From assembly GCA_025331435.1 (NCBI GenBank), contig JAIWNI010000023.1:275545-339544 (forward strand): a stretch of 64,000 bases of DNA, given 5' to 3'. Position numbers and translations under genes: made by a program. The notes under the pieces were generated by a model that made no database searches, was not told the DNA's origin, and was given only the letters and a program-made list of their open reading frames with translations. Origin of the DNA: Choanephora cucurbitarum (taxonomy: Eukaryota > Mucoromycota > Mucoromycetes > Mucorales > Choanephoraceae). The first letter of the stretch is position 1; each line of letters opens with the position of its first letter. This document shows, in pieces, positions 6,631 through 24,664 of this stretch.

Positions 6631-7511
6631 CCTTTAGATATATCCATTATCTTTTTTTTATCCTATTGGATCATACCCTTTCCCTTTGTCATTGACAACA
6701 ATTTATTATTTATGCAACCTTTCATAACAATAAACTCCACTTTAAAAGTATCAATTAGGCAGAGTCCGCTTCCTCTAACCTGTCTGTTCTATATATCAAG
6801 TGAAACAACATGAACCTATCCTGTTCCTAATGAAGTAAAGTACCAGTGTATTCACCAAATCATATCATGTTATTACCTACCAGCATGAGTTAGAGTAAGT
6901 GAATAAAGAACGCGTATGGATGGTTTCTTATTTCCAAAAGAGGCAAATCATACTAAGCCGCCCAATAAGAGTCCAATCATTTCTTTTTTTGGAAGTTTAG
7001 GCTATATACTTTTTCCATTCGTTGTTTCATCAAGTAAGAAAAAAAAAAAGGGAAATCAATCACTTAATTCTTGTTTCAGTCATGTTGAATAGGTATATTG
7101 CTGATAGAACAAAAAAAAAAGGGGGGGGAAGCCTATGTCTAGAAATGATTAGAGAGAGAATATATAGAAGTTTGGTCCCTTATTTTTTCAATTCCGCCTA
7201 TTGGTTCCCTCTCTCTTCTAAATTTTTTTTTGTGGGGAAGATCCTCCCCTTCTATATATTATTTTCTTTTTTTTTCTTTAATTTACTCTGTCATTCATTC
7301 AAAATATATATTTACTCTTCTATTCACTATGGAATCTAAAGTAGACCATACTCTATAATAATAAAAAAAAGCCACTTGTTTATTTGAATAAATTCAAAAG
7401 ATTTTCACGTGGAAATTAACTTGATCCTCCCCGCTTCTTTTTTTTTTTTTTTTGGAAAAAAAAAGTCAATTTTTCTCTTTTTTTTTTTCTTCTTCTTTTT
7501 TTTTTCTCAAC
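6631..7511. other. Intergenic, 0.9 kb
   Basis: 3' UTR of the methyltransferase gene and promoter of the bZIP gene. It holds an ACGCGT hexamer near 6909, an A-run followed by a G-run near 7111-7128, and a long T-rich stretch directly before the bZIP start. Nothing here looks coding. Confidence 0.65.
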
Positions 7512-8832
7512 ATGTCTTCTACTTCACAACCTCATTATGGCTCATCATTAAATGCCATCTATGTCAGTAATATGCCTGCTTATGAACAACCTATCAAAAT
7601 CCGTAAAAAGCCAGGTAGAAAACCAAATCCTGCCTCACCTGCCCTTCGCAAAGCACAGAACAGAGCAGCCCAACGCGCTTTCCGTGAACGTAAAGAAAAG
7701 CACCTAAAGGATCTAGAGAGCACGATTCGACAGTTAAGGGAACAGAGAACCCATGCAGTCAAGGAACTTAACTTGACCAAGAGTAAGATGGATGCCTATC
7801 GTGCTGAGAACTGGTATCTAAAGGGAGTTGTCCTGACACTTCAGTTTGTCTGTCTTCATCATAACATTCATATCCCGACCCATTCACCCTATCTGACAGA
7901 AGAAGCCCTGAGTGAGATGGCCAAGACAACACCACATGCCATTGAGGCTTATGTGAATGCATATACCAGAAATAATATTCATCTGAAGCCTACCATGGCT
8001 GCTCATTTCTCTAATATTGAACTAGATCAAACCATGTCGCCTGAAATGGGATCATTTCAAGAAGAAGGCGAAGAAGAAGAGTGGATACAACCTAAAGAAG
8101 AAGAAGAAGAACGGACAGAGCCAGCCACTAAACCCAATCCATCTAGTATCAGTGCCATTCAACGCCTACGACTTCAACTTCGACTTCAATCCACTCTATC
8201 CAACATTGGCAAATCAGCTGCTCGATTACAGCCTACCATTCTCCAACTGGCCATCCCACATGACCCACGTATCGATCTGGTGCCTACACCCCATATGCGA
8301 GACCGTATGATTCTCTTTCGCGATCTAATGGACTATGACCGGTGTTTTGCCATGTTGTTGAATGGAGCCATCTATCATGGAGGAGACCCTACAATGAGTG
8401 CCAGTTGGGAATTACCAGCTGAATTCTTTGCTGAGTTTTGGTATTTAGCTATTAATTATGATGTCAGTCGAACAAATACCTGGCGACGATCCAAGGGATT
8501 ACCTGACATAGTGTCCGATAGTCAACAACAGACACATGTATGGGCAGATGATGTATTTGCACACATGACAGAAGGAATGCCTACTTTACAGCCATTGGAT
8601 TCAGATCATTTGGCAAGTGGATTTGATTTTGGATCATCACCTCAGTTGGGTATGTTGGATCCATCCTATCTGTTACATCCCTCTCTCTCGGACACATCAG
8701 AAAGGCAGAGATCACCGAGTCTAGGTAAAAAAAAAAAAAAAAAAAAAAAGAGGGATATGAAAATTAAACACTTTTAATAATATAGGTGTCATGATGAATT
8801 TAATGAATTCACTATCTACAGATATGTCATAG
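7512..8832 (+). CDS. bZIP transcription factor, Pap1/Yap1 (AP-1-like) type
   Basis: Exons 7512-8724 and 8786-8832 give 419 residues. I start at 7512, since the upstream in-frame codons (7452-7511) are a T-rich, Phe-rich leader. The basic region RKAQNRAAQRAFRERKEKHLKDLE (about residues 45-68) has the NxxAQxxFR signature of fungal Yap/Pap1 factors, and a leucine zipper follows. Pap1/Yap1 factors regulate oxidative-stress genes. No clear paired Cys-rich redox domains are visible, so the redox-sensing role is not supported. The second exon restores a normal end; reading through the intron gives a false poly-Lys tail. The stop lies only 14 bp from the stop of the convergent Cys-rich gene. Confidence 0.88.
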
Positions 8833-8846
8833 ATCAATTTTTATTA

Positions 8847-9422
8847 TTAGAATAAAGCAAAACTACCGATGACCATGCCAGTGATAAGAAGAAAGAGAGA
8901 ATACGTTTGAGTCAGACTATCGCTCGTCTTGGTCTCTAGATTGGTCTTTGGTGATAGAGTAGGTAACATGGATCCAGTTGATTTAGAGACCACAGATGGA
9001 GTGAGAGTGGCTGAATGATTTTAAAAAAAGTATGTGTGAGTCAAGTCTATCTTCCATCTCTATTTCTTACCAATTGGCATCTGAGATGATGTTGTATTCA
9101 AAGCTACTTTTTGATCAGGCAGGGTGATAGATGTTGGCCTGATGATGGTTAGTATAAGATAGAAGCCATTAAGATAATTTGTTTTTTTACCAAGTAGCTG
9201 CAATACATCCATTGATACATTCTTTAGAGGGATTATGGATATTACATTGAGTGACACATGCATTGGCTGTCTTGACTAAATTATACCACATTAGATTTAA
9301 CTTTTGATTTTGGTAGAAATAGACTTACCACAGGTATCAATACAAGCCTGTTCTGATGGTTTACAGTTACAGCCAGCTGAGACAGAGGCAATTAAGAGTG
9401 AGAGAATAATGAATGATTTCAT
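8847..9422 (-). CDS. Small secreted Cys-rich GPI-type protein A
   Basis: Exons 9422-9329, 9275-9191, 9138-9071 and 9010-8847 give 136 residues. It has a signal peptide (MKSFIILSLLIASVSA), then an eight-cysteine module CxC-x6-C-x3-C-x6-C-x3-C-x8-C-x3-C ending in Trp, a Ser/Thr-rich stalk, and a hydrophobic tail (LFLLITGMVIGSFALF) that looks like a GPI-attachment signal. The same cysteine layout, and a first intron at the same codon and phase, occur in the gene at 20096, so the two are homologous. The function is not known. It is convergent with the bZIP gene, leaving 14 bp between stop codons. Confidence 0.8.
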
Positions 9423-10105
9423 GAGTGATTTAAAGAAAGAAAGAAAGAAATGAATCTATCTTTTATATCTTCTTCTCCCCTATCACCTCCTTTTGCATTT
9501 TCTACTCTCTCCTCAAGTCTTTTTTTGTATATAATAAGATAAGAGACTCATTTATCACTTTTCTCTCTCTTATAAATTAAAAAGGAGAAGAATGAACAGT
9601 GACCATATGGAATGAGGATAGCATAGAAATGTCAGTTTAAAACTTTATTCACTTATAAGGGAATTTAAAACAATATGCACAAGCAAAGAAAACCTTAAAT
9701 GATTGTTTCATAAAGAACTTTATCTCCTTAGAACGCCACGCTAAGAATATAGAGTGTATAATGATTACTTTAAAAAGAAAGTGCAAGAGCTTTTGAGTAG
9801 GACAACTATTGTATCACCAACATGTATAATGCACTCCATCATTGTCACTCTTATTGATCTACAGAATAAGGTAGAAATAACCTTATTTGAATTCTACCCT
9901 CAAGGTTACTTTAAGGCGTAAAAAGTAATTCATCCAGTTGAATTACCTTAAAAATCTGTAAAATGGTTACACAATCTATCACGAGGATATATATATCATT
10001 TTATTAACATACATAGAGCATAAACAAGAATAAGAAAAGAATTGTTTACATAGAATAAAATAGCATACATAAGCGTATCATCAATAGAAATGGGCATAAT
10101 GAGGT
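9423..10105. other. Intergenic, 0.7 kb
   Basis: Promoter of the small Cys-rich gene and 3' flank of the GATA-like gene. It is AT-rich with a GAAA-repeat leader near 9435-9450. I see no gene or RNA. Confidence 0.6.
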
Positions 10106-11437
10106 TTACCATAAAGAAGAAGGAGAAGAAGCAGTGGAGGAATAAACAGAACTTCTTCTATCACTTGAAAGTTGTAAAGAAGGTAAAGGTGGTGTGATTG
10201 GATAAGAAAGTGATGTAGTGCTTGAGGTAGGACTGTGACTTGTTTGAATCTGGTTATCATAATAATAAATGTTGTTAAAGATGGCTGAGGTAGCAGACTC
10301 AATTGTCTCTATTGGAATCTCATCCCAGGACCATGTATTCCAGTCTGCCAATGTACGTATGTCCACCTTACGCTTGGCTGCCTTCAAAAATAACTCGGGT
10401 GGTCTTACTTTTGTGTGACGGAGATAATAGCTCTTGCAGGTTTCACACCAATGTCCATGGCCACATAGATTGCGATACCATTGATGTGTCTCTTGTACTT
10501 TACAGTTTGCACATGATTTCTGTTGTCGACTAGGGGTGTAGAACATGGGTTCTTCTGCTGGTTGAATACGTGGTCCTGGTCGGTTGGCAACAATCAATCG
10601 CAAGGGCCGAGATTCACCATGCTTCAGTTGATACCGGTAACAGGCAACACAGAGACGTCGTCTGGAGGCAGGTTTTGTATTGCAGTTAGAACACATTGGC
10701 TTAAACTTAACTGGTCTAGGCTGATGAAGTAACAAGAGTAAAGCTGGATAGAGAGCAGGTTGATGGCTGTTATGTTGTCCATAGAACAGGTCAGGTCGAG
10801 GTAAGTTGCGGTAATCAAGTCCTGCATGATCAAATAAGAAATCAGCCAACTCAATGGCCGATTTGAGTTTAAATGGATCAAACTGATGGAGATTGAATCG
10901 AAATAAGGTATTCAAGACATGATTCAGACGGTAGATGTGGTCTTCTTTGGCCAGATTGGCATTCTCCAGGAACCGTACATCTGTCCTGCCAGGTGTGGTA
11001 CCATGTTGGGTATAGCGAAAGAGATGAAGTAACCAGGTAGGGAAAAAGATAAATTCAGGTGAAACAAGTTGGCTTTTGGCACTCTCAGCACGAAAGAAGA
11101 CAGCCAACATCCTCATCTGTTGAGATAGTTCAGTGGATCGAATGGGTCGAGATGCCTTACTGGTGCCAATGTGGCATCGAAAAGAACCATTCATGTGCCT
11201 GCCTATGACCTTGATATGGGCCGGAATGGTAGTGTGATGATCGACTGAAGTGAGGATAGCATCCGTCAATGAGTTTCTTTCGTTTGATGTCTGGACAAGA
11301 TAGCCTGATTGTTGGAGAGCAGATTGCCATAGTGACATGAGTTGATCATCATGAACAGCTAGATTGGCTGATTCGATTCTGATTGGCTCTAGTTTGGTAG
11401 TGATCTGTTGAGGTAATAAAAGCTCTGTGATGTTCAT
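10106..11437 (-). CDS. GATA-like zinc-finger protein (putative transcription factor)
   Basis: An intronless 443-residue frame. The second of two fingers, near residue 308, reads CANC-x18-CETC followed by KSYYLRHTKVRPPEL, which matches the GATA-type layout. A first, shorter CxxC pair (CSNC-x11-CVAC, followed by YRYQLKHGESRP) near residue 247 looks like a contracted version of the same finger. The N-terminal 240 residues have no motif I recognise. The C-terminus is Ser/Thr/Pro-rich. The finger loop lacks the usual LWRR/TPLWR residues, so DNA binding to GATA sites is only inferred. The gene is divergent from XMAP215. Confidence 0.7.
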   Translation of the reverse strand: MNITELLLPQQITTKLEPIRIESANLAVHDDQLMSLWQSALQQSGYLVQTSNERNSLTDAILTSVDHHTTIPAHIKVIGRHMNGSFRCHIGTSKASRPIRSTELSQQMRMLAVFFRAESAKSQLVSPEFIFFPTWLLHLFRYTQHGTTPGRTDVRFLENANLAKEDHIYRLNHVLNTLFRFNLHQFDPFKLKSAIELADFLFDHAGLDYRNLPRPDLFYGQHNSHQPALYPALLLLLHQPRPVKFKPMCSNCNTKPASRRRLCVACYRYQLKHGESRPLRLIVANRPGPRIQPAEEPMFYTPSRQQKSCANCKVQETHQWYRNLCGHGHWCETCKSYYLRHTKVRPPELFLKAAKRKVDIRTLADWNTWSWDEIPIETIESATSAIFNNIYYYDNQIQTSHSPTSSTTSLSYPITPPLPSLQLSSDRRSSVYSSTASSPSSLW

Positions 11438-12207
11438 GATGTAAATAAATAAAAGAAAGAAAGCAATGAAAAAATTAAACTAGAGTATTTATATACTTTT
11501 TTTTTGTTGTTGTTGATTTAATAATACGATTTATTGATATGATAGATTTCCTCCTCTTTTTAAATTTTTTCCGTTTCTTTCTTTGTCTAATTTAATATTG
11601 GCTTTTTCATTGTCTGAATTCACGAGATAATATGGTGAACAACCATGTCCACTCCTTTTTGTTACAGATAAAACTATATTTAGCTCATACTGTTCTCGAG
11701 AACAAAATGATTATGTGACAACTTTCTAATACGCGTTTCTTTTTTTAATGCTCTTTCGTCCAATTCCAAATTAAGCTCTACACTTATATAAAAAAAAAAA
11801 AAGGGAAAAAGAGAGAGAGAGAGAGAGATAAACAATGAAAATACTTGAAAGCAAAATTACACTTTATAAACTATATAAGACTGCAGATCCAACTAAACAT
11901 AGTCTATAAATGGCATCAAAGAAAATGCCGAAAATTGATGTTTATATCAACCAACATACTTATAAGATAGGCGCACACTTGGTCATGAATTCCATTTAAT
12001 TCTTTGTTATAAAGGTTCGTGAAACCACTGATCATTCTTGACGTAGAGAGAGAGAAAAAAAAGTCAATGTAATTCAATCACCGCATTTTAATTTTATCAA
12101 AAAATAATAATAATAGATGACCTTTCACTCTTTTTTTTTTTTTATATCGTCTTTAAAAAACATCAAAAAAAGAACAGAAAAAGGGAAATCTTCAAACGAT
12201 AGGGGTT
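11438..12207. other. Divergent promoter region between GATA-like gene and XMAP215
   Basis: This 770-bp spacer has an ACGCGT (MCB-like) hexamer near 11732 and a GA-dinucleotide run near 11812-11828. It should drive both divergent genes. Nothing in it looks coding. Confidence 0.55.
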
Positions 12208-15200
12208 ATGAGTGCACCAGAAGAGGACTTTTCTTCTTTGTCTATTGTTGACAAATTACAACACAAGGTAATGAGTGTGTGATGATGTTCTCTCTCTTCA
12301 TCTGACCTTTTTTTTTTTTTTATATGATCAGTCCTGGAAGGCGCGTTTACAAGCCTGTGAAGAACTTACGAAATTACTTCATAAAACAGTAGAAGATTCA
12401 GATTTTGATACCTATGAACCTTACTTGAAAAAACTAGCTACGGAAGCAAATGCTGTAGCTCAAGAAGCAGGTCTTTCTGCCATTATTGAATACGTCACAA
12501 ATGCACCTCATGCATCCAAGTAAGTCCACAAATGATAAAATCTTTGCATTCTAATTTCGATTTAGTTCTCGTGAAACAGTCGTACCTGCCCTGGTGGAGA
12601 AATGTCTTGGAGCAACCAAGGCAGGCACCAAACAGAAAGCAACCGATATTATCTTACTTTATGCAGAAATAGACACACCGGATCCTGTGCTGGTAAGTGA
12701 TAGCTCACGGTAAATATAGATTGACTCACCTATGGAAAGGAATTCGTCTTGCCTGGTCTCAATGCCAAACAACCTAAATTAGTGACTCAGACAGTCTTTG
12801 TGATCAAGGAACTCGTTCGACAGTTCGGTATCAAGAAAGTCAGTCCAAAGCCTATCATCAAACTATTGCCTAAACTATTTGGACATACAGACAAAAATGT
12901 GCGAGCAGAGACATTTGCATTGACAACAGAACTCTATCGATGGATTGGACAGCCTATGATGGCTAGTTTATCTGATCTAAAGCCTGTGCAACTCAAGGAA
13001 CTGGAAGAGGCATTCTCCAAGTTACCAGCCGATAAACCCAAACCAGAACGATTGATTCGAGCTGAACAGGCAATAGAAGAAGAACCTGAAGAACAACCTC
13101 AGGAAGATATGGGTAGGGTTGTAGATTGAGATAAAGATCGATTGAAATAACCTTGATGATGTAGGTGATGATCAGGCTGAAGATATGGAAGTAGATGAGG
13201 CAGATGCATTTGATTTTGCTGATCCTGTGGACATTACAGCTAAATTACCTAGTAACTTTAATGAATTGATCGTATCCAAGAAATGGCAAGAAAGAAGAGA
13301 AGCCTTAGATGCTCTATTAGAACAAGCAAAGACACCCAAGATTCTGGATAAAGATTACAGTGAATTGATAGGTCATTTGGTCAAAGTAAGTCATATTCTG
13401 TTGTTATTGATTTCATACTAAATTATAATGATGAAGCGTATCAATGATTCCAACATTCTCTTGGTGGGTGCAACTGCATCTTGTGTGGAAGCCATTGCAA
13501 CAGGCTTAAGAACTGAATTTGGCAAATACAAGCCATTGATTGCACCTGTCATGATTGAGAAACTGAAAGAGAGAAAACCAGCTATTCTAGAACAACTGGC
13601 CAACGGTCTCAATGCCGTATTTGCCTCTGTGCCCATGTCAGAACTGATTGAGGATGTCACGGTCGCCTCAAAACACAAGAACCCTCAAGTGCGATCTGAA
13701 TCATTCAAGTTGGTGTCTCGACGACTGAAGGAAGTGCGTGAGATGCCTGGTAAGGGTGAGATCAAGGCATTTGCAGACATGTTTAAGAAATTGTTGGATG
13801 ATGCGGATGCCAATGCGCGTGAGGCAGGTGCTGAGGGTTTAGGTACATTGATGAAATTGATTGGTGAAAAACCCATGTTGGCCTTCATTGATGGTCTGGA
13901 TGATATCAAGATGGGCAAGATCAAGGAAGCTTGTGAGAAGGCCACAGTGAAAGCAAAACCACCTAAAAAGGCCGCACCACCGGTTGTTAAAAAACCTACA
14001 CCCATCAAAAAGCCTGTTGCTAAACCCAAACCCAAGGCAGAACCCATGGTGGTGGATGATGGACCTGCAGAAGACATGAGTGCCACTCTATCTCCTCCTA
14101 AACGCAAACCACCTGCTCGTTTATCCTCAGGCACAGCCAAAAAGCCAGCCCTCTCTTCTAAACCGAAACCAGCACCAGCACCAGCCAAGAAGAGTGCGAA
14201 ATTACCACCCGCAAGTGGACCTGAAGAGATTCGATACAAGTACTCTCAAGAAGATGCGGAAGCACGCGCCACGGACTATATCCCTGAATCAATCCATACT
14301 GACTTGCAGCAGGCACAATGGAAATTACGTTTGGCCGCAATGGAATCGTTGTGTAAGCATCTTGAACAAGAGGTAGAAGAGACAGAGCCTGAGATTGTGA
14401 TTCGATCGTTATCAAAGAAACCGGGATGGAAGGAAATGAACTTTCAGGTGATGGGCAAGATCTTTGGCGCCATCCAGACCCTGACTGAGTCTCCCAAGTT
14501 CAACAAGGCATGTGCTGCCCTCTCTATCCCTGTCATGGTGGAGAAGTTGGGTGATATCAAGCTAAAGAAGCCTGCAGGCGAATGCTTGGTGGCCATTGCC
14601 GAAAGTATTTCTCTTGAATTTGTCTTTTCTCAATCCTATCCAGTTCTCAAGAAAGCCAAGTCGCCCAAGGTGTTGGCAGATTCCTTGTTATGGATTCATT
14701 CGGCCTTGACGGATTTCGGCATTGCAGGTCTTCAGATTCGTGACCTGATTGACTTGCTTAAGTTTGGTTTAGGTAACACAAATGCTTCTGTCAGAACAAG
14801 TGCTGTTACTGTCTTGGGTGTTCTTCGACAATACATTGGTCCAGGTAAACTAAATAAAAGAAGATAAAGAAAGTACTAACTTGTTATATTTTAGAAATCA
14901 AATCATTTGTGGAAGATGTAAGCCCTGCTTTGTTGAGTACAATTGAACAAGAATTTGAAAAGGTATCCAAAATGGATCCTCCTCAACCTACCAAATTCTC
15001 TAAAGGAGCTGCTGCCGCGCCTGCAAGCTCAAGTAAGGGGGAAAGTCATGCACCCAGTGCCGGCAATACTGGTGCCGATGAAGACCCATTGGATGCCTTG
15101 TTCCCAAGACAAGATATCTCTGGCCCACTAGCCAAGACGGTAGCCGAATGCAGTGATGCCAACTGGAAGATCCGTAAAGAGGGTCTAGAGAAAGTCCAGG

Positions 15201-18200
15201 CGATTCTTGCTGGCGCCAATAACCGTATCAAGCCTTCCTTGGGTGGCGATTTCCCAGGCGTCCTGAAGCAAAGATTGGCTGATAGTAACAAGATTCTGCA
15301 GATGACAGCTGTTGATATCACAGGTGCACTGGCTCTGGCGATGGGAAAACCGTTTGATAAATACGCTAAACTCTTTACGGGTCCTTTGATCTCTGTCTTG
15401 TCCGACAACAAATCAAACGTGCGTGCCTCTGGTCTGACTGCGTTGGAAAATATCCGCAAGACCTGCTCGATGGAGCAGATGGCATCTGTGTTTGGCACCA
15501 GTCTAGCCAATGAAGCGCCCTTGTTGCGAAAGGAGTTCCTGACATGGTTTGCGACGGCCATCAAGGAAGAACAGGAGGCGAGTCGGTACGATCTGGCAGG
15601 CATGATCACGCCCATGTTTTCCTGTCTTCAAGACCGTAATGCAGATGTAAGAAAGGCAGCACAGGCAGCCTTGCCCGAACTGATTCGTGCGGTCGGCTAT
15701 GACGCTGTGGCCAGCAAGACTAGCGAGCTCAAGGCTGCACAACGCCAGACGGTGATGCCATTGGTAGAGGCTGCAAGGGGTAACGCACCTTCGTCTGCCA
15801 AGAAACGTCCCGAGACAGTTGAAGATCATGCTCCCAAATCGCCTGCATCTACACCCAGTCGTATCAAGACAGTCTCGCGTAAGAAAGTGGGTATTCCAGC
15901 TCCTCGATCGACTCCAGCAGCAGTATCACAAGCTGCACCTGCTGTGGAGGAGACAGTCGCACCTGTTCTCACAAGTGATGCGCGTGCTAAGGCTGTGCGT
16001 GCCAAGAAGGAGATCCGATGGCAGTTTGATGCTCCTCGTCCAGATGTGATTGACGCCCTCAAGTCTCTGTTTGATGCCAACATGAGTCCTCAACTCAATA
16101 GTCTGTTGTTCAGTAGTAGTCAGTATGCAGAGCGTGATCGTCTGAATGGCCTGACCATGTTGAACGAATGTCTTGCTTCTCCTGAGGTGTGTATGAACAA
16201 ATACCAAGTTGATTTCTCGGACATGAAGGCACGTTATGTGGCCAATGCCGATTTGATCTTCAAGTATCTGACCATTCGATTCTTTGATACGAACACCAGT
16301 ATGTTGATCAAGTGTCTGGATATTGCACAAAACTTGGTTGCTGTGTTGGATGAAGAAGAGTACAGTTTGTCTGAATATGAAGCCGTCTCTTTCCTGCCTT
16401 TCTTGATCAACAAAGTGGGTGATCCTAAGGAAGTAATGCGTCAACGTATTCGTGCTATCTTCAAATCGATCTGTCGTATCTATCCTGCTAGTAAGATGTT
16501 GAATTACCTTTTGGATGCTGCAGCTACCTCCAAGAACGCCAAAGCGCGCGCTGAATGCCTTGAAGAGATAGCCTCTCTGATTCAGAAAAATGGCATGTCT
16601 GTCATGTTACCCAACAAGGCCTTGCCTGCTATTGCTACTCATATTGGAGATAAAGATAACAGTGTTCGTTCTGCTGCCCTGAATGCTGTTGCACAAGCCT
16701 ATATCTTAGTAGGTGATGCTGTAATGAAATACATGACAAGACTTGGTGATAAAGAAAAGAGCATGTTGGAAGAAAGATTAAAAGTAAGTTGTTTTAATTA
16801 AGAAAGAGAGAGAGAGTCATTTACCATTTTCTTTCTTTCTTTCTTTCATAAGCGTACCAAACCCTCTGCCAGTGTGCTTGCTGCTGTTGAAAAGGAACAA
16901 CGGGCCAAACAAGAAGCAGAAGAAATGGAAGAAAACGAGTTACCTTCACTTAGTAACCTACCACGTCCTGGAGGAAGATCACAGATCGGTAGACCTCGTA
17001 GTAGTCCTCAGCGTTCAGTTCATCATGTACAAAGTATACCCGAACCAGAGCCTATGGAAGATGTCACTGATGATTATGGAAATATGGTACCTGAACCACA
17101 ACAAGATCATCGTCATCAAGGATTACGACCTCCTCAACAACATTATAATTACAACCAACCTCAACAGCAACAACAGCCTTATGGTCAACAAGAAGAAATT
17201 GTAGATTATCTGATTGCTCAAATCACAAGTGGCGATCCTCAACCTAGTATTGAAGCACTCAAGAGTCTAGACAAGTTCTTGACACAAAACCCTGAAGCCA
17301 TCTTGCCTGATATTGAACGATTAATCAATGCCATCACACTCCAAGTCAGACTGGCTTATTCTTCAGTAGACCCACGTCAGCCAGCCACCACTCGACTGTG
17401 TAAGCATCTGGTCAATGCACTCGTCTTGTTGTTTTCCAATAAAGACCTGGCCTGTGCAGTACCTCAAAGTGCACTGCATCATCTGTTACAAGAACTAGCA
17501 GCCCGTCTGTTGGATCAAAAGATGCTGGCATTGGAATCAGGCCCTCAACTGTCCAAGGCGCTCAATGTAGCCATGGTCAAGGTACTTGAGAACAGTGCGC
17601 GAAATGTCACATTTAGGTAAGATACCATCAGACCTGTTCGATTTTCCTTTTTTTTTTTTCAACTCACGATTTTTATAGTGCATTGTTGGCCATTCTAGGT
17701 CAATGTTCTGCTAATTTACGTCCTGGCGATTCACCTACAGCGAAAGATACCAAATATACAGAACTGATCATGAAATGTCTATGGAAATTAGCAAAGACCA
17801 TTCAAGAGAACCTTCGGACCAACACACTTAATCCAGATGAATTGTTGTACGAAATCAATCAATTCTTCATTACCACACCTCCTGCTGAATGGAAACGAAG
17901 GGCTGCTGAAAAGGTACCCTTGGGTGAAATGCCCTTGAGGACCGTCAAGACCTTATTGCTTGAACTCGTCAATGGATTAGGTGATTCCATCTTTCAACAT
18001 TTGACATTGATCGAAAACCCTCAGAGTAGCAGTGTCTATCCTTACCTTCATCATATGCTTGAAGCCTGTCGCAAAAAGGATCGATTGCAGCAACAACCCC
18101 ATATGTCCTATTCACCTCAACAGCCTATCCGAACACTTCAGCAATCGCCTGTCTATGCACAACCATCACCTCAACAACAAGACTACTTGGGTCATTCGGC

Positions 18201-19377
18201 CATGAGTCGTCCTGCTTCAGCATCTTCTTTTAAATCCAATACCATGATGAGAACACCCTCTGTTACCTCACACCCCTCTTCTGTCGAAGGCGATCACCAT
18301 GATATGTCTACCGGCAGTCCTCGTTTAAATGCATCTTCATTGAACAACAATACCGCCATCAATCATTCAGTGCAGCCCATGCAGATCGATGAGCCTTCAC
18401 CTAAAGACGGAACACCACAGCCTCTTTCTGATTATGACCTAAACGTGACCTTGACTCGTATCTTCCAGAAGATCGGCACACGAGACCAAACCAAACAGGT
18501 AAAAAGCCCTCTCTCCCTTTGAGACATGAGACTGCAGTCTGATACTCACCATTACTTTTCTATTGACACATAAAAAAAGGGTATTATTGAGCTTTATGAA
18601 TTTCAAAAGAGTTATCCACTTGCTGAAGCCAAGGTAAACAACTTCCTTGTACAAACAGGCACCTATTTCCAAAGTTATATTAGACGAGGTCTCAGCAACC
18701 TGGCTGCTGAAGACAACGAATCACATGCTGCTGCTCAAGCCAAAGCACAACAGGCACAACCATCTCCACCTCTTCAAACTCCCGTTTCAACACAACCGAC
18801 ATCTACCCTTGCTTCCCCTAATCTAAATGCAGTTTCGTCTAGCTCTCTCGACCATACCAACTCCACCTCTATTTTAGATCAAACAGCCGAACGAGTCCCT
18901 GTTGATTCCATGTCAAGAAGTGAGATGCGTTCTAGTTTACACGCAGGAGGTAAGATTTTTTTTTATTTTAAAAGGACAACACAACTCATTCTGTTCTAGA
19001 TGATACAGCAGAGATCAAACTTAGACTGTTACGGCTACAACAAAAGTTTGGTTACAAGACAGATGTAAGTTGGATAGATAAACAAAAAAGAGAGAGAGAG
19101 AAATTGATTTAAAGATGTTTAGGTTATGGAAGACACATCAGGGTCTAGCCATGCTGCTGGCCTAAGTGCTTCATCTGATACCACCAACCGATATGAGAGT
19201 TCAACGTCCTACAGTAGTTATTCTTCTCGTAGACAATCTGGCTTAAACCAAGATTATGTACAGCGTGAAACAGGTCAAGGTGAATCTGATCGACAACAAT
19301 CTGTATCTGCTCTTAAAGAAAAGATAGCCAAAATGAAACAAGTCATTAATTCTGCTGCTTCTTCACCTAATCTGTAA
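12208..19377 (+). CDS. XMAP215/ch-TOG/Dis1-family microtubule polymerase with five TOG domains
   Basis: Twelve exons join in frame: 12208-12267, 12332-12519, 12566-12692, 12740-13112, 13165-13385, 13437-14844, 14895-16783, 16853-17616, 17679-18498, 18580-18949, 19000-19064, 19123-19377 (2,179 residues). Five HEAT-rich TOG arrays are visible, starting near residues 12 (SWKARLQACEEL), 275 (KKWQERREALDAL), 600 (AQWKLRLAAMESL), 855 (ANWKIRKEGLEKV) and 1170. Pro/Ala/Lys-rich basic linkers lie after TOG2 and TOG4. A C-terminal helical domain begins near 1536 (LIAQITSGDPQPS), as in ch-TOG where it contacts TACC. The family adds tubulin at plus ends and works at spindle poles. Yeast Stu2 and Alp14 have only two TOGs, so this is the animal-type layout. 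A TACTAAC branch site lies in the intron after exon 6. Confidence 0.95.
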
Positions 19378-20095
19378 TTTCTGTTCATAATGTAGCTTAA
19401 TTAAAAGAAAAAAAAAAGCAAATAATAAGTTTAAAATGAGTGCATTGACGATACAAAAAAAAATGTTTTCTTGTGTAAGGTTGCACATTACTTTTTTGAC
19501 ATTTGGGAACACAAGAAATGGATAATGATCTATTTCTTTGTTGTCAATCCTACTTTATTCTATCATTCGGCCGAACAAATTAACAGATTGTTAGATCCTT
19601 TAAGCCTTTGAAGTTCCGCTACTGATCGGATCAATCGGGCTGAAAGTGGATCTTGTTGTTCTGATAGAGACGCACTATTTGAATCCGAAGAAACCAAGTT
19701 ATCTGACGTGTTATAATCCTCCTGATTCTTTTAATTTAGAGTCATTATGGAACGTTTGTTTGGTACCTTTAGTATCATCATATAACCAAAAAAGAAAGTG
19801 GCGATTGAAAAAAAAAATCAACACTAATCTTTCTCCTTAAAGTACGCTTGTTTACTAAACTCCAAATTCTGAAAAAAGCTTCTCTGTTGTTGCGTAGTTT
19901 CAAATTCATTGTCACCTTATAATCAATAGAGTGCTGTATTTATCGAAATGATGTAAACATTCAATTTCGGCTCTTGAAAGAGAATGGTATCATTGTCTCA
20001 AGATAAGCATGACAATCTCCGATTCACTTCTTTATAAATAGCAGGTTTCCCTATTTCTTTCTTTCTTTTTCTTCTTTTCATTTAATCTATTCATC
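19378..20095. other. Intergenic, 0.7 kb, with a possible LINE endonuclease scrap
   Basis: 3' flank of XMAP215 and promoter of the second Cys-rich gene. It holds the short open frame described separately at 19646-19840. The remainder is AT-rich and uninformative. Confidence 0.55.
19646..19840 (+). pseudogene. Possible relic of a LINE apurinic-type endonuclease domain
   Basis: A 64-codon open frame begins DLVVLIETHYLNPKKPS. The VVLIETH core resembles the catalytic ETH motif of AP-type endonucleases in non-LTR retrotransposons, and a decayed LINE exists elsewhere in the window. The match is short, and no other endonuclease motif follows. It may be chance. Confidence 0.25.
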
Positions 20096-20826
20096 ATGAA
20101 GATCTCTATTCTTGGCTTAGCTGCTGTTGCCTTCAGTTTACACAGTGTCTTTGCTGCTACTTGTGATTGTAATGCTGGTGACACTGCCTGTCAATCTAAA
20201 TGTGGTATGTAACTCAACACAATAACACTAGAGAAATCATACAACTCAATACTGTTTTAATTCAAGTTGAAAATACCAACAGTTGTATCAGTAACTGTAA
20301 TGGCAATGTAGATTGTTACCAAAATTGTATCGACAGCAACTGGCCTGGTATTCCTCGTACCAAGACTGAATCAGCAACTGTAGGTGCTACCACAACACAG
20401 AATGCTTCTGCATCTAGCTCTGCATCTGCTTCTCGTTCTGCTGCAGCCTCTACATCTGCTGCTGCATCTGCTGCAGCATCTGCCGCTACATCTGTTGCTG
20501 TTTCTGCTGCTTCATCTCGATCTGTTGCTTCTGTTTCTGCTGCTTCTTCTATTGCTGTTAGCGCTGCCCCTTCTTTATCTGCTGTCTCTTCCACTTCTCT
20601 TGCCAGTGTTTCTTCACCTGCTATTTCAGGTTCTACCACCGACATTGTGCTTAGTATTGCCTCCAGTACTGCTTCTAACTCTGTTCGTGCTTCTAGCTCT
20701 GTTGCCCGTGCTTCTGTCACTGCCTCAGCCTCTACTACTCCTAGCCCTAATGCTGCCAACAAGAATTCTGCACTTGGCTTAGCTGCCTTGACTGCAGGTG
20801 CTGCCGTTGCTCTCTTTGTATATTAA
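20096..20826 (+). CDS. Secreted Cys-rich, Ser/Ala-rich GPI-type protein B
   Basis: Exons 20096-20204 and 20267-20826 give 222 residues. The signal peptide (MKISILGLAAVAFSLHSVFA) is followed by CxC-x6-C-x3-C-x6-C-x3-C-x5-C-x3-C and a Trp. A 130-residue Ser/Ala-rich stalk follows, likely O-mannosylated, and then a hydrophobic tail (LAALTAGAAVALFVY) typical of GPI attachment. The intron interrupts the codon right after the fourth cysteine in phase 1, exactly as in the gene at 8847-9422, so the two share ancestry. A cell-wall or cell-surface protein is inferred; the function is unknown. Confidence 0.85.
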
Positions 20827-21225: not shown

Positions 21226-22212
21226 TTAAACATCCACAATGCGTTGTACTTTGTTACAATCTGTTAAATGTTCTCCTCTATATTTGATCAAATATTCACC
21301 ATTTTCTTTCCAGGTCACTGTCTTGTTAACAGGACAACCCTTTAACAAAAAAGTTAGTTTTGATGCAAAAAAAAAAGCGACCACTTACTTTAGTGCTATT
21401 GGAGCATTTGTAATAGACACTTTTGTTGCCTGTCTTCTTTTGTACAGTGTTACCATTGTTCTTCCAAAAATAGCCATCAATGTATGGATATTCTCGTGTC
21501 TCCACAATTTTCGTAATTGCCTGCATTTCTCTTCTTCTACGAGGACGTGATGGGAAATCATAGCGTGTGGGTGTGATGGAAGCTCTGTGTTCCATTGGAT
21601 ATGATTGAGGAATATGAAAGGCATCTTCATCTAAACGATATTCAGGTGAAAGTGGGTGTTGTTTATTATGGAGTGACGACATGGTAAAGCTAAAATAAAT
21701 TGTGTTTAGTCATTTAAAAAAAAAACGGGAAAGGGTTTTCTGACTCGGGGATTGGTATATCGTGGGGTAAGCGGGATTTTTTTTTTTTTTACCTTTCCAT
21801 TTGAAGCAGTGAAGATGTGGAGACCGGGGTAGCAGATGTGGGGATTGGTGAAAAGGTGCGGTCATCTAACTCATCCGAATCTGCACTACCATTAAAGGAT
21901 GAACCTATCGTTGAATCTCTTCTATGCTGTTGTTGTTGAATAAATGGTCCACATTGAGTGGGAGAAGACAAGATGGCATCTAGGCTTGTGCGTCTTAGGT
22001 TATTGAACATTCGACTGTCTGTGGAAGAGTTACTGCTTAAGGGAGGTGTAGGATGAACAGTGAAATCTGATGTATTGAGGTTTTGTGGTTGGAAAGTGTT
22101 TATTGAATTGGCAGATGAAAGATCATGATTATCGTTTGGGTTCATTGAATGCGAGTTTAACAATTGTTGCTGTTGTTGTTGTTGTTGCTGTTGTTGTTGC
22201 TGTTGCTGTTGC

Positions 22213-22285
<73 letters not shown>

Positions 22286-22664
22286 GCTGATGTTGCTGTT
22301 GTTGTTGCTGATGTTGCTGTTGTTGCTGCTGTTGCTGTTGTTGCTGTTGTTGGATCAATAAGAGATCAAGTTCCTTTGCCTTTAATTTAGCTTCTTCTGC
22401 TCGTCTTTTATCTTCTTCCAATTTACTTAACAAAATAAGCTTCAGAAGTTCAGGCTGCGATTGATAGCTATAGATAATATCCTGTAGATCGCCTGAAGCA
22501 GGGTTCTGTGTTGGCATATCTTGTTTCATAGGTGGAGAGGCAAGGTTTGCCATGGTATGCATAGGTCGGGAAAAAGAGTGAAATGGGACTTGTTCATGAT
22601 GATACAATTGAACTGTCTTTGCTGTATCTTTTGCCAATGTATAATTCGTGTTATAGTCGGACAT
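21226..22664 (-). CDS. WRKY/GCM1-superfamily zinc-finger protein with a long polyglutamine tract
   Basis: Exons 22664-21793, 21689-21389 and 21339-21226 give 428 residues. The C-terminal domain reads YPYIDGYFWKNNGNTVQKK, then SVYYKCSNSTKGCPVNKTV, a W, and YLIKYRGEHLTDC. This follows the WRKY order (DGYxWRKYGQK, YYxCxxxxCxVxK, YxGxH), with WKNNGNT in place of WRKYGQK and likely Zn ligands C-x6-C-x21-H-x3-C. The N-terminal half has a helical Lys/Glu-rich segment (LLKLILLSKLEEDKRRAEEAKLKAKELDLLL) leading straight into 63 codons of Gln with two His. Such a layout suits a transcription factor. The three-exon join is supported by frame and by the recovery of the third and fourth Zn ligands in exon 3. 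Confidence 0.8.
22164..22352 (-). repeat. CAA/CAG trinucleotide tract encoding 61 Gln and 2 His
   Basis: Sixty-three codons within exon 1 of the WRKY-like gene. The middle is almost pure CAA, and the 3' part mixes CAG with two CAT codons. The frame is kept, so it is translated. Long pure CAA runs are prone to slippage, so the length probably varies between strains. Confidence 0.95.
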
Positions 22665-24664
22665 GTTTTTCTTAATAAAAAATACAAGAAAAAGAAAGAA
22701 AGAGAGAAACAGGGTTTCCCGTTAACTCTTTTCTTTTGATCGTTTTATTTTCTCAGGGTCACTCGCATTGGCTCCGCTCTTTTGAATTCGTCAGGTTAGT
22801 TAAATGTGTGGAGTCATGAGTGTGGGAGAAAGCGGTAGTTCGATTCGATTGGTGTATGGATGGTCTTGTTTAATCTCAGAACAACACTTTTGGAATAAAA
22901 GGGTAACTGAAGCAAAATAAGATGAATTGAATTGCTTAACAAAGAACACTTTTAGCTAGTATTTGGCATAGTACATGATAGTTTGATGTGTTTCTTACTG
23001 TATATTCAAAGTCATTAGGATAGTTCGTTATTTGTCTATTGGTAATAATTGACACGTGTTTCGTGTATATCCCCCCCTCCTTTCCCTCCCAAGATAATTT
23101 ATATCAGGCGATTTCAAAGTAAAAGAGAAACAAAGAGAGAATAGCCTCTAAGCTATAAAAAGAAATAAGCTTCAAGTAAAGGATGTTTGTTCACTAAAGA
23201 ATTTGCTTATCTAAAGCAAAGAAAGGGTCTTTTTTATTATTATATTTCCTGAAACGGGAAAAAAGAAACTTAAATAATTCATCAATTTACAGTTGAAACT
23301 GTTGGATGTTTCAGTGAGAAAGTCTATAAAATAAAAGGGAAATTTCCCTTAAAAAAAAAACCTCCTAATTTATTGAAACAAAAAATCAAAAATAACAATA
23401 AACTATTGTCATGGCCACATACACTAAACAGACAAAATGACGGACTTTTACAGAAATGGGTAACGTGGTTTGAGTGTAACTTGTAGCTTGTATTGTTCTG
23501 TTTAAACAGGCAGATTATTCTACTTTAATACAACTATATAACTAAAAAGCTAGTTTCTCTTTTTCTAATCTTTCTGTTTCATTAAATGTTGTTTATTTGA
23601 GTGACATTTTAAGAGTAATTGTCTCTCTCTCTCTTATTGACTAGTTGAAGGAAGGAGAGTGTAGATCATTCACCCAATTGAAGCATAAAACTTTGTAAGC
23701 TTTATGCATTGAAAATAGGGATATTTGGCTGGTAAGCTTTATCTTTCTCTAAAACCCTATGCTCAAACTGAATTTTTGGGAGTTTTTAGTATGTTTGAAT
23801 TGGAATATCACTGTAAGCATAATGCATAAAAATTAAAAAAAGTTTTATGCTTAAATCAAGGGTACCACTGTATTAAAAAAAAAGAGATGTCAATTGACTA
23901 TCATGCGATATAGAAAGACAAAAGTACTTTCTTAATTTCAATACTGTGAAGGTCTAGGTATATAAACTACTAAATTGGTTTCAAACATATTAAAATTAAT
24001 AGAATGATAGACTTATAACTTCTCTATTATTCACTAGCCTAACTTTCATAAAAAAAAACAGCACTTTATAAATCAAGTGTAAACTGGTTCAAATCAACCA
24101 GTGAATATTTAATTTCTAGAGTGATCGTTTAAATTAGCCATCCTAATGAGATAGAGATCGCTTCAAGCTAAACCTATTTTACATTCACTATGAGACTAGC
24201 TAGATCTCTTGGTAATATGGGTTAGCAACAAGTCATCATGTCAAATTATTATCAAGGCCATTGTTACTTCTACTGTTCAGAGAGAGAGATCTACCCGCAG
24301 TATACACTCAAGCAAATCAAACACACCTGTCAAATAGACCTTTACCGGGCCAAACATTCATCGCCATTCAATGTCCGCCGGGACCAAGATTTTTTTTTTC
24401 GTAGTGTACTTGTGTTATGGATTACTGTATCCTTGAGCCCGTTCTCTTTTCACTTACTGGTCATTTGTACGTATTACCCCCCCATCCATCCATCCATCTC
24501 CTATCTCTCTCTCTCTCTCTCTTTTTGTATAGAAGAACACTCCATCTCTGTTAAGAAAAAATAAGCCCAAAAAATAGAACAGTCGAAAAGAGAGAGAGAA
24601 TGTTATCATCGGGATAATGACTAACTTATTTTTTCTTTTCATTGGAATTGGATGACATCAGATC
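22665..24664. other. Intergenic, 2.0 kb, with an inverted-repeat element
   Basis: Between the divergent WRKY-like gene and eL13. It contains the imperfect inverted repeat listed at 23681-23869, a C-run near 23072, (CT)n runs near 23620 and 24505, and a CATC repeat near 24482. No coding frame looks real; the 24238-24564 frame is low-complexity. Confidence 0.6.
23681..23869. mobile_element. Possible MITE / Tc1-mariner-type inverted-repeat element
   Basis: Two arms face each other: AAGCATAAAACTTTGTAAGC followed by TTTATGCAT on the left (23681-23709) and, on the right (23822-23852), ATGCATAAAAATTAAAAAAA followed by GTTTTATGCTT. The right arm runs on into GGGTACCACTGTA, which resembles the CAGTGG-type termini of Tc1/mariner elements. 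The matching left terminus is not clear and there is no transposase inside. This could be a decayed MITE or a chance hairpin. Confidence 0.35.

What the first reader, a model, noticed from the sequence alone, without database searches (positions are those of the whole stretch)
8847..20826. Two homologous secreted proteins sharing an eight-cysteine code and intron position
Genes at 8847-9422 and 20096-20826 both have a signal peptide, then CxC-x6-Cx3C-x6-Cx3C-x5/8-Cx3C followed by a Trp, a Ser/Thr or Ser/Ala stalk and a GPI-type tail. Each has its first intron right after the fourth cysteine, in phase 1. I do not recognise this module from a named family. Three repeated Cx3C pairs suggest helical hairpins held by disulfides. 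They sit 11 kb apart, on opposite strands.
Basis: partly seen in the sequence, partly recalled or inferred. Interest (0 to 1): 0.75.

Follow-up and report, generated by a model that had tools for sequence, protein, structure and literature searches.

The report
Eight-cysteine fungal surface protein family
Two genes in this fungal sequence belong to a small, so far unnamed family of probable cell-surface proteins with a knob locked by eight cysteines on a stalk, seen so far only in one family of moulds; its job is not known.

Summary
Genes A (8847-9422, -) and B (20096-20826, +) encode a signal peptide, CxC-x6-Cx3C-x6-Cx3C-x8/x5-Cx3C...WP, a Ser/Thr- or Ser/Ala-rich stalk and a GPI-type tail, with the first intron in phase 1 after Cys4. 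The window lies in Choanephora cucurbitarum, a Mucorales crop pathogen. The assembly holds two more members, C and D, with the intron at the same place. D has relatives in Blakeslea and Gilbertella, also Choanephoraceae. A joins the others only by profile: 0 of 2000 cysteine-kept shuffles reach its score. No Pfam family reaches its cut-off; CFEM does not appear. AlphaFold gives moderate confidence to a two-helix hairpin, Cys3-6 on one helix, Cys7-8 on the second; no convincing PDB match. Best reading: a lineage-restricted family of GPI-anchored surface proteins, laid out like CFEM proteins but not shown to be members. Function is inferred. Real and apparently undescribed, but orphan secreted families are common in fungi, so interest is moderate.

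The parts
8847..9422 (-). Gene A: exons 9422-9329, 9275-9191, 9138-9071, 9010-8847; 136 aa
   Evidence: introns 1 and 2 agree with deposited protein P0002; intron 3 is my model
9375..9422 (-). Gene A signal peptide (about residues 1-16)
   Evidence: Sequence, by eye; no predictor run
9138..9371 (-). Gene A eight-cysteine module, Cys18 to Trp60, interrupted by introns 1 and 2
9276..9328 (-). Gene A intron 1, phase 1, after Cys4 (position shared by all four members found)
9011..9070 (-). Gene A intron 3 (60 nt), kept in the deposited 85-aa model, which so lacks the tail
8850..8930 (-). Gene A GPI-type C-terminal signal
   Evidence: Hydropathy and charge pattern; no predictor run
20096..20826 (+). 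Gene B: exons 20096-20204 and 20267-20826; 222 aa
20096..20155 (+). Gene B signal peptide (about residues 1-20)
   Evidence: Sequence, by eye; no predictor run
20162..20343 (+). Gene B eight-cysteine module, Cys23 to Trp62, interrupted by the intron
20205..20266 (+). Gene B intron, phase 1, after Cys4
20344..20748 (+). Gene B Ser/Ala/Thr-rich stalk
   Evidence: S+T 43%, A 28%
20749..20823 (+). Gene B GPI-type C-terminal signal
   Evidence: Hydropathy and charge pattern; no predictor run

Best explanation
A and B are two of at least four members of a lineage-restricted family of cell-surface proteins in Choanephora cucurbitarum. Shown from sequence: a signal-like N-terminus, then an eight-cysteine module, a stalk, and in A, B and C a GPI-type tail. 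Predicted: the module folds as a disulfide-locked helical hairpin, with Cys3, 4, 5 and 6 along one face of a first helix, Cys7 and Cys8 on a second helix, and the CxC strand tied back to them; a Trp-Pro caps it. Inferred: the protein is carried to the plasma membrane or wall by its GPI anchor, the stalk is O-glycosylated and holds the compact head at the hyphal or spore surface, and the head serves as a protease-resistant wall or adhesion/ligand-binding knob. The members differ in stalk length and head surface, as expected for surface proteins facing different partners.
For: Phase-1 intron after Cys4 in 4 of 4 members. Invariant Cys1-8, Val after Cys4, Ile after Cys8 and Trp-Pro in 4 of 4. Homology of A beyond cysteines: 47.0 bits against a profile of the other five modules; best of 2000 cysteine-kept shuffles 39.9, best of 2000 cysteine-, W- and P-kept shuffles 46.2. 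Stalk and tail composition. Relatives in Blakeslea and Gilbertella with the same layout. Two-helix models, block pLDDT 75-84 over residues 21-60 of P0002 and 64-80 over residues 21-60 of P0001. Cys3-6 fall within 60 degrees of one another on an ideal helix in 6 of 6.
Against: No transcript, proteome or localisation data. GPI signal and signal peptide judged without predictors. A is not linked to B, C or D by single-sequence searches of the genome, and one shuffle came within a bit of its score (46.2 against 47.0). D ends in a tail with charged residues near its end (nearest 9 from the end), atypical for a GPI signal. Models rest on alignments of 3-4 sequences, with pTM 0.45 and 0.30. Disulfide pairing was not read from coordinates. 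Nothing found here shows adhesion or ligand binding.
Confidence: 0.55

Rival explanations
1. A divergent CFEM-type protein: a GPI-anchored eight-cysteine head that binds haem through an acidic residue and serves iron uptake.
For: Same layout (N-terminal eight-cysteine domain, mostly GPI-anchored) as CFEM proteins described in PMC8540330 and PMC13030711 (passages). UniRef's name for the Gilbertella relative begins 'Extracellular membran' (cut; that it goes on to CFEM is my guess). An acidic residue stands three before Cys3 in 6 of 6 modules (sequences).
Against: No PF05730 row at E <= 10 for four spliced proteins and three relatives. A loosened CFEM spacing, recalled, fits 0 of 6. The models show two helices in the module, not the helical basket. 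No PF05730 match in the genome (searched exon by exon, and no control genome passed the cut-off, so this is weak).
Confidence: 0.1
2. A secreted antimicrobial or host-directed peptide of alpha-hairpinin type: the head is cut from the stalk and acts on competitors or plant tissue.
For: Cx3C-x6-Cx3C fits the lax alpha-hairpinin 4C motif CX3CX4-20CX3C and is the most prevalent spacing there; CxC before the core is a listed variant (PMC11591084, passages). Helix-loop-helix model. The fungus is a plant pathogen (PMC5238444, abstract in the listing, passages).
Against: Stalk and GPI-type tail argue for a tethered protein. Net charge of the module is -6 to 0 in the six, unlike typical cationic antimicrobial peptides (general knowledge). 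In that paper alpha-hairpinins are plant peptides. I did not look for a processing site.
Confidence: 0.12
3. A and B merely converged on the same cysteine spacing.
For: Only 4 of 23 aligned non-cysteine positions agree between A and B. A as a query finds only itself in the genome at E <= 10, and B, C, D and P0003 as queries do not find A. Cysteine codes converge easily.
Against: Same intron position and phase in 4 of 4; invariant V after Cys4, I after Cys8 and W-P; 0 of 2000 shuffles reach A's profile score even with Cys, W and P kept, although the best came near (46.2 against 47.0).
Confidence: 0.04
4. A twin-Cx3C protein of the mitochondrial small Tim kind.
For: Weak profile match to yeast TIM8, E 0.28.
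Against: Signal peptide and GPI-type tail; the match covers about 30 residues and is not significant; no Pfam match.
Confidence: 0.01

Closest known systems
CFEM domain proteins (PF05730)
   Same: Fungal, N-terminal eight-cysteine domain, mostly GPI-anchored, helical
   Different: Cysteine order and spacing differ (spacing recalled), no HMM match, predicted two-helix hairpin instead of helical basket; haem binding untested
Plant alpha-hairpinins (4C/6C antimicrobial peptides)
   Same: Cx3C...Cx3C pairs and a helix-loop-helix model
   Different: Eight cysteines, third Cx3C pair, acidic or neutral, GPI-type tail and stalk, fungal
Twin Cx3C small Tim chaperones
   Same: Two helices with Cx3C pairs
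   Different: Secretory rather than mitochondrial, different loop lengths and cysteine number (recalled)
Hydrophobins
   Same: Small secreted fungal proteins with eight cysteines
   Different: No adjacent cysteine pairs in the module (the defining CC doublets are recalled), no Pfam match

Membership tests
CFEM (PF05730) | Match to the CFEM profile above its curated cut-off (22 bits) | tested here: not met
   No CFEM row at E <= 10 for A, B, C, D (full spliced proteins, and the modules) and P0001-P0003
CFEM (PF05730) | CFEM order and spacing of the eight cysteines | tested here: not met
   Loosened regex (spacing recalled, not from a call) fits 0 of 6 proteins
CFEM (PF05730) | Helical-basket fold with four disulfides | tested here: inconclusive
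   Two-helix models of moderate confidence; Foldseek and VIA lists show no CFEM, which excludes nothing
CFEM (PF05730) | Haem bound through a conserved aspartate | not testable with these tools
   An acidic residue is conserved before Cys3, but its role is unknown
CFEM (PF05730) | N-terminal cysteine domain on a GPI-anchored protein | tested here: met
   Layout in A, B, C by composition only, no GPI predictor; not specific to CFEM
Plant alpha-hairpinin | CX3CX4-20CX3C core | tested here: met
   Spacings; motif definition in PMC11591084
Plant alpha-hairpinin | No three or more further cysteines unless they form another such motif or part of it | tested here: inconclusive
   Four further cysteines; one pair is again Cx3C, the CxC pair is not
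Plant alpha-hairpinin | Released peptide with antimicrobial activity | not testable with these tools
   No processing or activity data
Hydrophobin | Two CC doublets among eight cysteines (recalled) | tested here: not met
   No adjacent cysteines in any of six modules (spacings); no Pfam match
Small Tim (twin Cx3C) | Significant match to a small Tim | tested here: not met
   Best PDB sequence match TIM8 at E 0.28; no Pfam match

The most novel reading that the evidence does not exclude
In Choanephoraceae this module is an independently evolved counterpart of the CFEM domain: a new disulfide-locked helical-hairpin head that fills the place of CFEM on GPI-anchored wall proteins, binding a small ligand or wall polymer in fungi whose genome shows no CFEM match.
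Probability: 0.12. Interest if true: 0.6.

Novelty: new variant of a known kind. Interest (0 to 1): 0.35.

Why it matters
Many surface proteins of Mucorales have no family name. This one gives a clear signature (cysteine code plus a fixed intron) that can be tracked across genomes, points to a deposited gene model that probably lost its tail, and adds a gene (B) that the protein search did not find as deposited. If the head binds a ligand, it would be a case of a CFEM-like design arrived at separately.

Tried and rejected

More members in the genome: an exon-2 pattern gave 6 places (reversed control 0), of which 3 are B, C, D and 3 lie in frames without the module. An exon-1 splice-junction pattern gave 36 places (reversed control 43), of which 30 came as loci and were read. 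Outside TG repeats only A, B and C carry both halves of the code; one more, L036, fits the first half by letters but has a stop in it and no second half; 6 places were not read. D lacks the splice consensus used there. Query peptides for exon 1 and exon 2 found no further member.

Literature: nine searches; I saw listings, which were capped (20 of 41; 15 of 29; 15 of 31; 12 of 62; 10 of 53) and complete (11; 12; 5; 2). None of the titles or abstract starts shown describes this module. Passages only were seen of PMC5238444, PMC4161775, PMC8540330, PMC11591084, PMC13030711, PMC9723739, PMC5872309 (no CFEM in its text) and PMC7693903 (the CFEM passages shown concern Candida). No paper was read whole.
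Full report
WHAT WAS CHECKED. Both genes were rebuilt from the window DNA. Gene A runs 9422..8847 on the minus strand in four exons (136 aa); gene B runs 20096..20826 on the plus strand in two exons (222 aa). The cysteine spacings are 1,6,3,6,3,8,3 (A) and 1,6,3,6,3,5,3 (B), followed by Trp-Pro. The first intron starts one base into the codon after Cys4 in both. A combined pattern of both exon codes round a GT-AG intron is found twice in the window, at A and B, and 0 times in 500 dinucleotide-preserving shuffles; places with more than 11 cysteines were dropped in both.

WHERE IT IS. The window is G000:C146:275545-339544 of an assembly of 33.4 Mb in 357 contigs. The deposited protein P0002, named as Choanephora cucurbitarum EDC96DRAFT_505600 and lying on a contig of 339,544 bases, the length of C146, is letter for letter my gene A with intron 3 retained. 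The organism is thus most likely Choanephora cucurbitarum (Mucorales, Choanephoraceae), which causes blossom rot in cucurbits (PMC5238444, abstract in the listing; that paper describes another assembly, 29.1 Mb). The deposited 85-aa model agrees with introns 1 and 2. It ends inside intron 3 and so lacks stalk and tail. I prefer the 136-aa model, because the exon after intron 3 supplies the GPI-type tail that B and C have. GT..AG ends hold in 8 of 8 introns of A-D, and a loose branch-site word occurs in 7 of 8, not in the first intron of C. This is inference without transcripts. Proteins matching B or C were not found in the protein database, so they may be missing from the deposited gene set or modelled differently.

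A FAMILY, NOT A PAIR. Protein searches of the same assembly found two further members: C on contig C157 (216 aa, minus strand; E 4.2e-6 from B) and D on C348 (175 aa, plus strand; E 0.066 from B). From D, C scores E 0.024 and B E 0.068. All four have a phase-1 intron right after Cys4. The alignment has invariant Cys1-8, Val after Cys4, Ile after Cys8, and Trp-Pro. So A, B and C have no relative in another species among these hits. The three named species are all Choanephoraceae. The search needs shared five-residue words, so more distant relatives in other Mucorales would be missed; the restriction is a statement about what this search could see.

HOMOLOGY OR CONVERGENCE. A is the outlier: it shares 4 of 23 aligned non-cysteine positions with B and also with C, against 10 of 23 between B and C. 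As a query A finds only itself in the genome, and B, C, D and P0003 do not find A. A profile of the other five modules scores A at 47.0 bits. Of 2000 shuffles of A that keep the cysteines, the best reaches 39.9 (mean 21.0, s.d. 4.7); of 2000 that also keep W and P, the best reaches 46.2 (mean 27.7, s.d. 5.2). Together with the intron position, this supports common descent. A and B are neighbours at 10.7 kb, but not each other's closest relatives.

OTHER MEMBERS IN THE GENOME. An exon-2 pattern matched 6 places (reversed control 0): B, C, D and three places in frames without the module. A pattern for Cx3C at a consensus 5' splice site matched 36 places (reversed control 43, so it is unspecific), of which 30 were read. 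Outside TG repeats only A, B and C carry both halves of the code; six places were not read. Four members is therefore a lower bound at this sensitivity.

KNOWN FAMILIES. No Pfam family reaches its cut-off: hmmscan of full A and B, the four modules, and P0001-P0003 with full C and D. The few weak rows lie outside the module. NCBIfam and PHROGs gave nothing of use. The best PDB sequence match is TIM8 at E 0.28. CFEM is the nearest known design: fungal, eight cysteines, near the N-terminus, mostly GPI-anchored (PMC8540330 and PMC13030711, passages). But the profile does not match and the recalled CFEM spacing, loosened, fits 0 of 6. The UniRef name of P0003 begins 'Extracellular membran' (cut); it may go on to CFEM, and such names are often automatic (my knowledge). 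PF05730 has no match in this genome, but the genome was searched exon by exon and no control genome passed the cut-off, so that absence is weak evidence. The plant alpha-hairpinin motif CX3CX4-20CX3C is formally met, and CxC before the core is a listed variant (PMC11591084, passages). That motif is lax, and the peptides in that paper come from plants.

HOW IT MOST LIKELY WORKS. Shown: the sequence layout and family. Predicted: the helical head. Inferred: secretion, GPI anchoring to membrane or wall, O-glycosylation of the stalk, and a head held at the surface as a tough wall or adhesion/ligand knob. The D group differs: a ninth cysteine two before Cys1 is present in all three genera, and the stalk carries HTTVIRLTTVTP, identical in Choanephora, Blakeslea and Gilbertella, with one match in this genome. 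So D probably has its own, conserved role. D of Choanephora has charged residues near its end, so its GPI anchor is doubtful.

VERDICT. A real and apparently undescribed small family: nine literature searches (five of the nine listings capped) showed no paper on it in the rows listed. The Choanephora genome paper reports 657 genes with a signal peptide, of which 97 are orphans, 84 of these without known domain (PMC5238444, passage). So a lineage-restricted secreted family is expected rather than surprising. I rate it a new variant of a known kind, interest 0.35.

Noticed in passing
window 21326-21709 (-): ORF beside gene B with a partial WRKY domain match (PF03106, 21.0 bits, equal to the cut-off of 21, E 3.9e-4, profile 2-29 of 59): a WRKY-like zinc finger in a fungus, perhaps continued in another exon.
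   Followed up: partly
window 9011-9070 (-): The deposited protein for gene A (EDC96DRAFT_505600, 85 aa) equals my model with intron 3 kept, and so loses stalk and GPI-type tail.
   Followed up: yes
L004 (G000:C348) 484-1144: Member D: its stalk motif HTTVIRLTTVTP is identical in three genera; one match in the genome. A ninth cysteine before Cys1 is shared too.
   Followed up: partly
window 7425-8774 (+): ORF with DUF3425 (above cut-off) and a bZIP match (below cut-off): a likely transcription factor gene next to gene A.
   Followed up: no
window 10109-11479 (-): ORF between A and B with, by eye, two CxxC-type fingers; one resembles a GATA finger, below cut-off (14.3 bits).
   Followed up: no
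window 13422-14864 (+): Open frame with TOG/HEAT domains of the XMAP215/Dis1 kind between A and B; by eye the gene seems to extend over neighbouring open frames.
   Followed up: no
window 21789-22721 (-): ORF with a long polyglutamine run.
   Followed up: no
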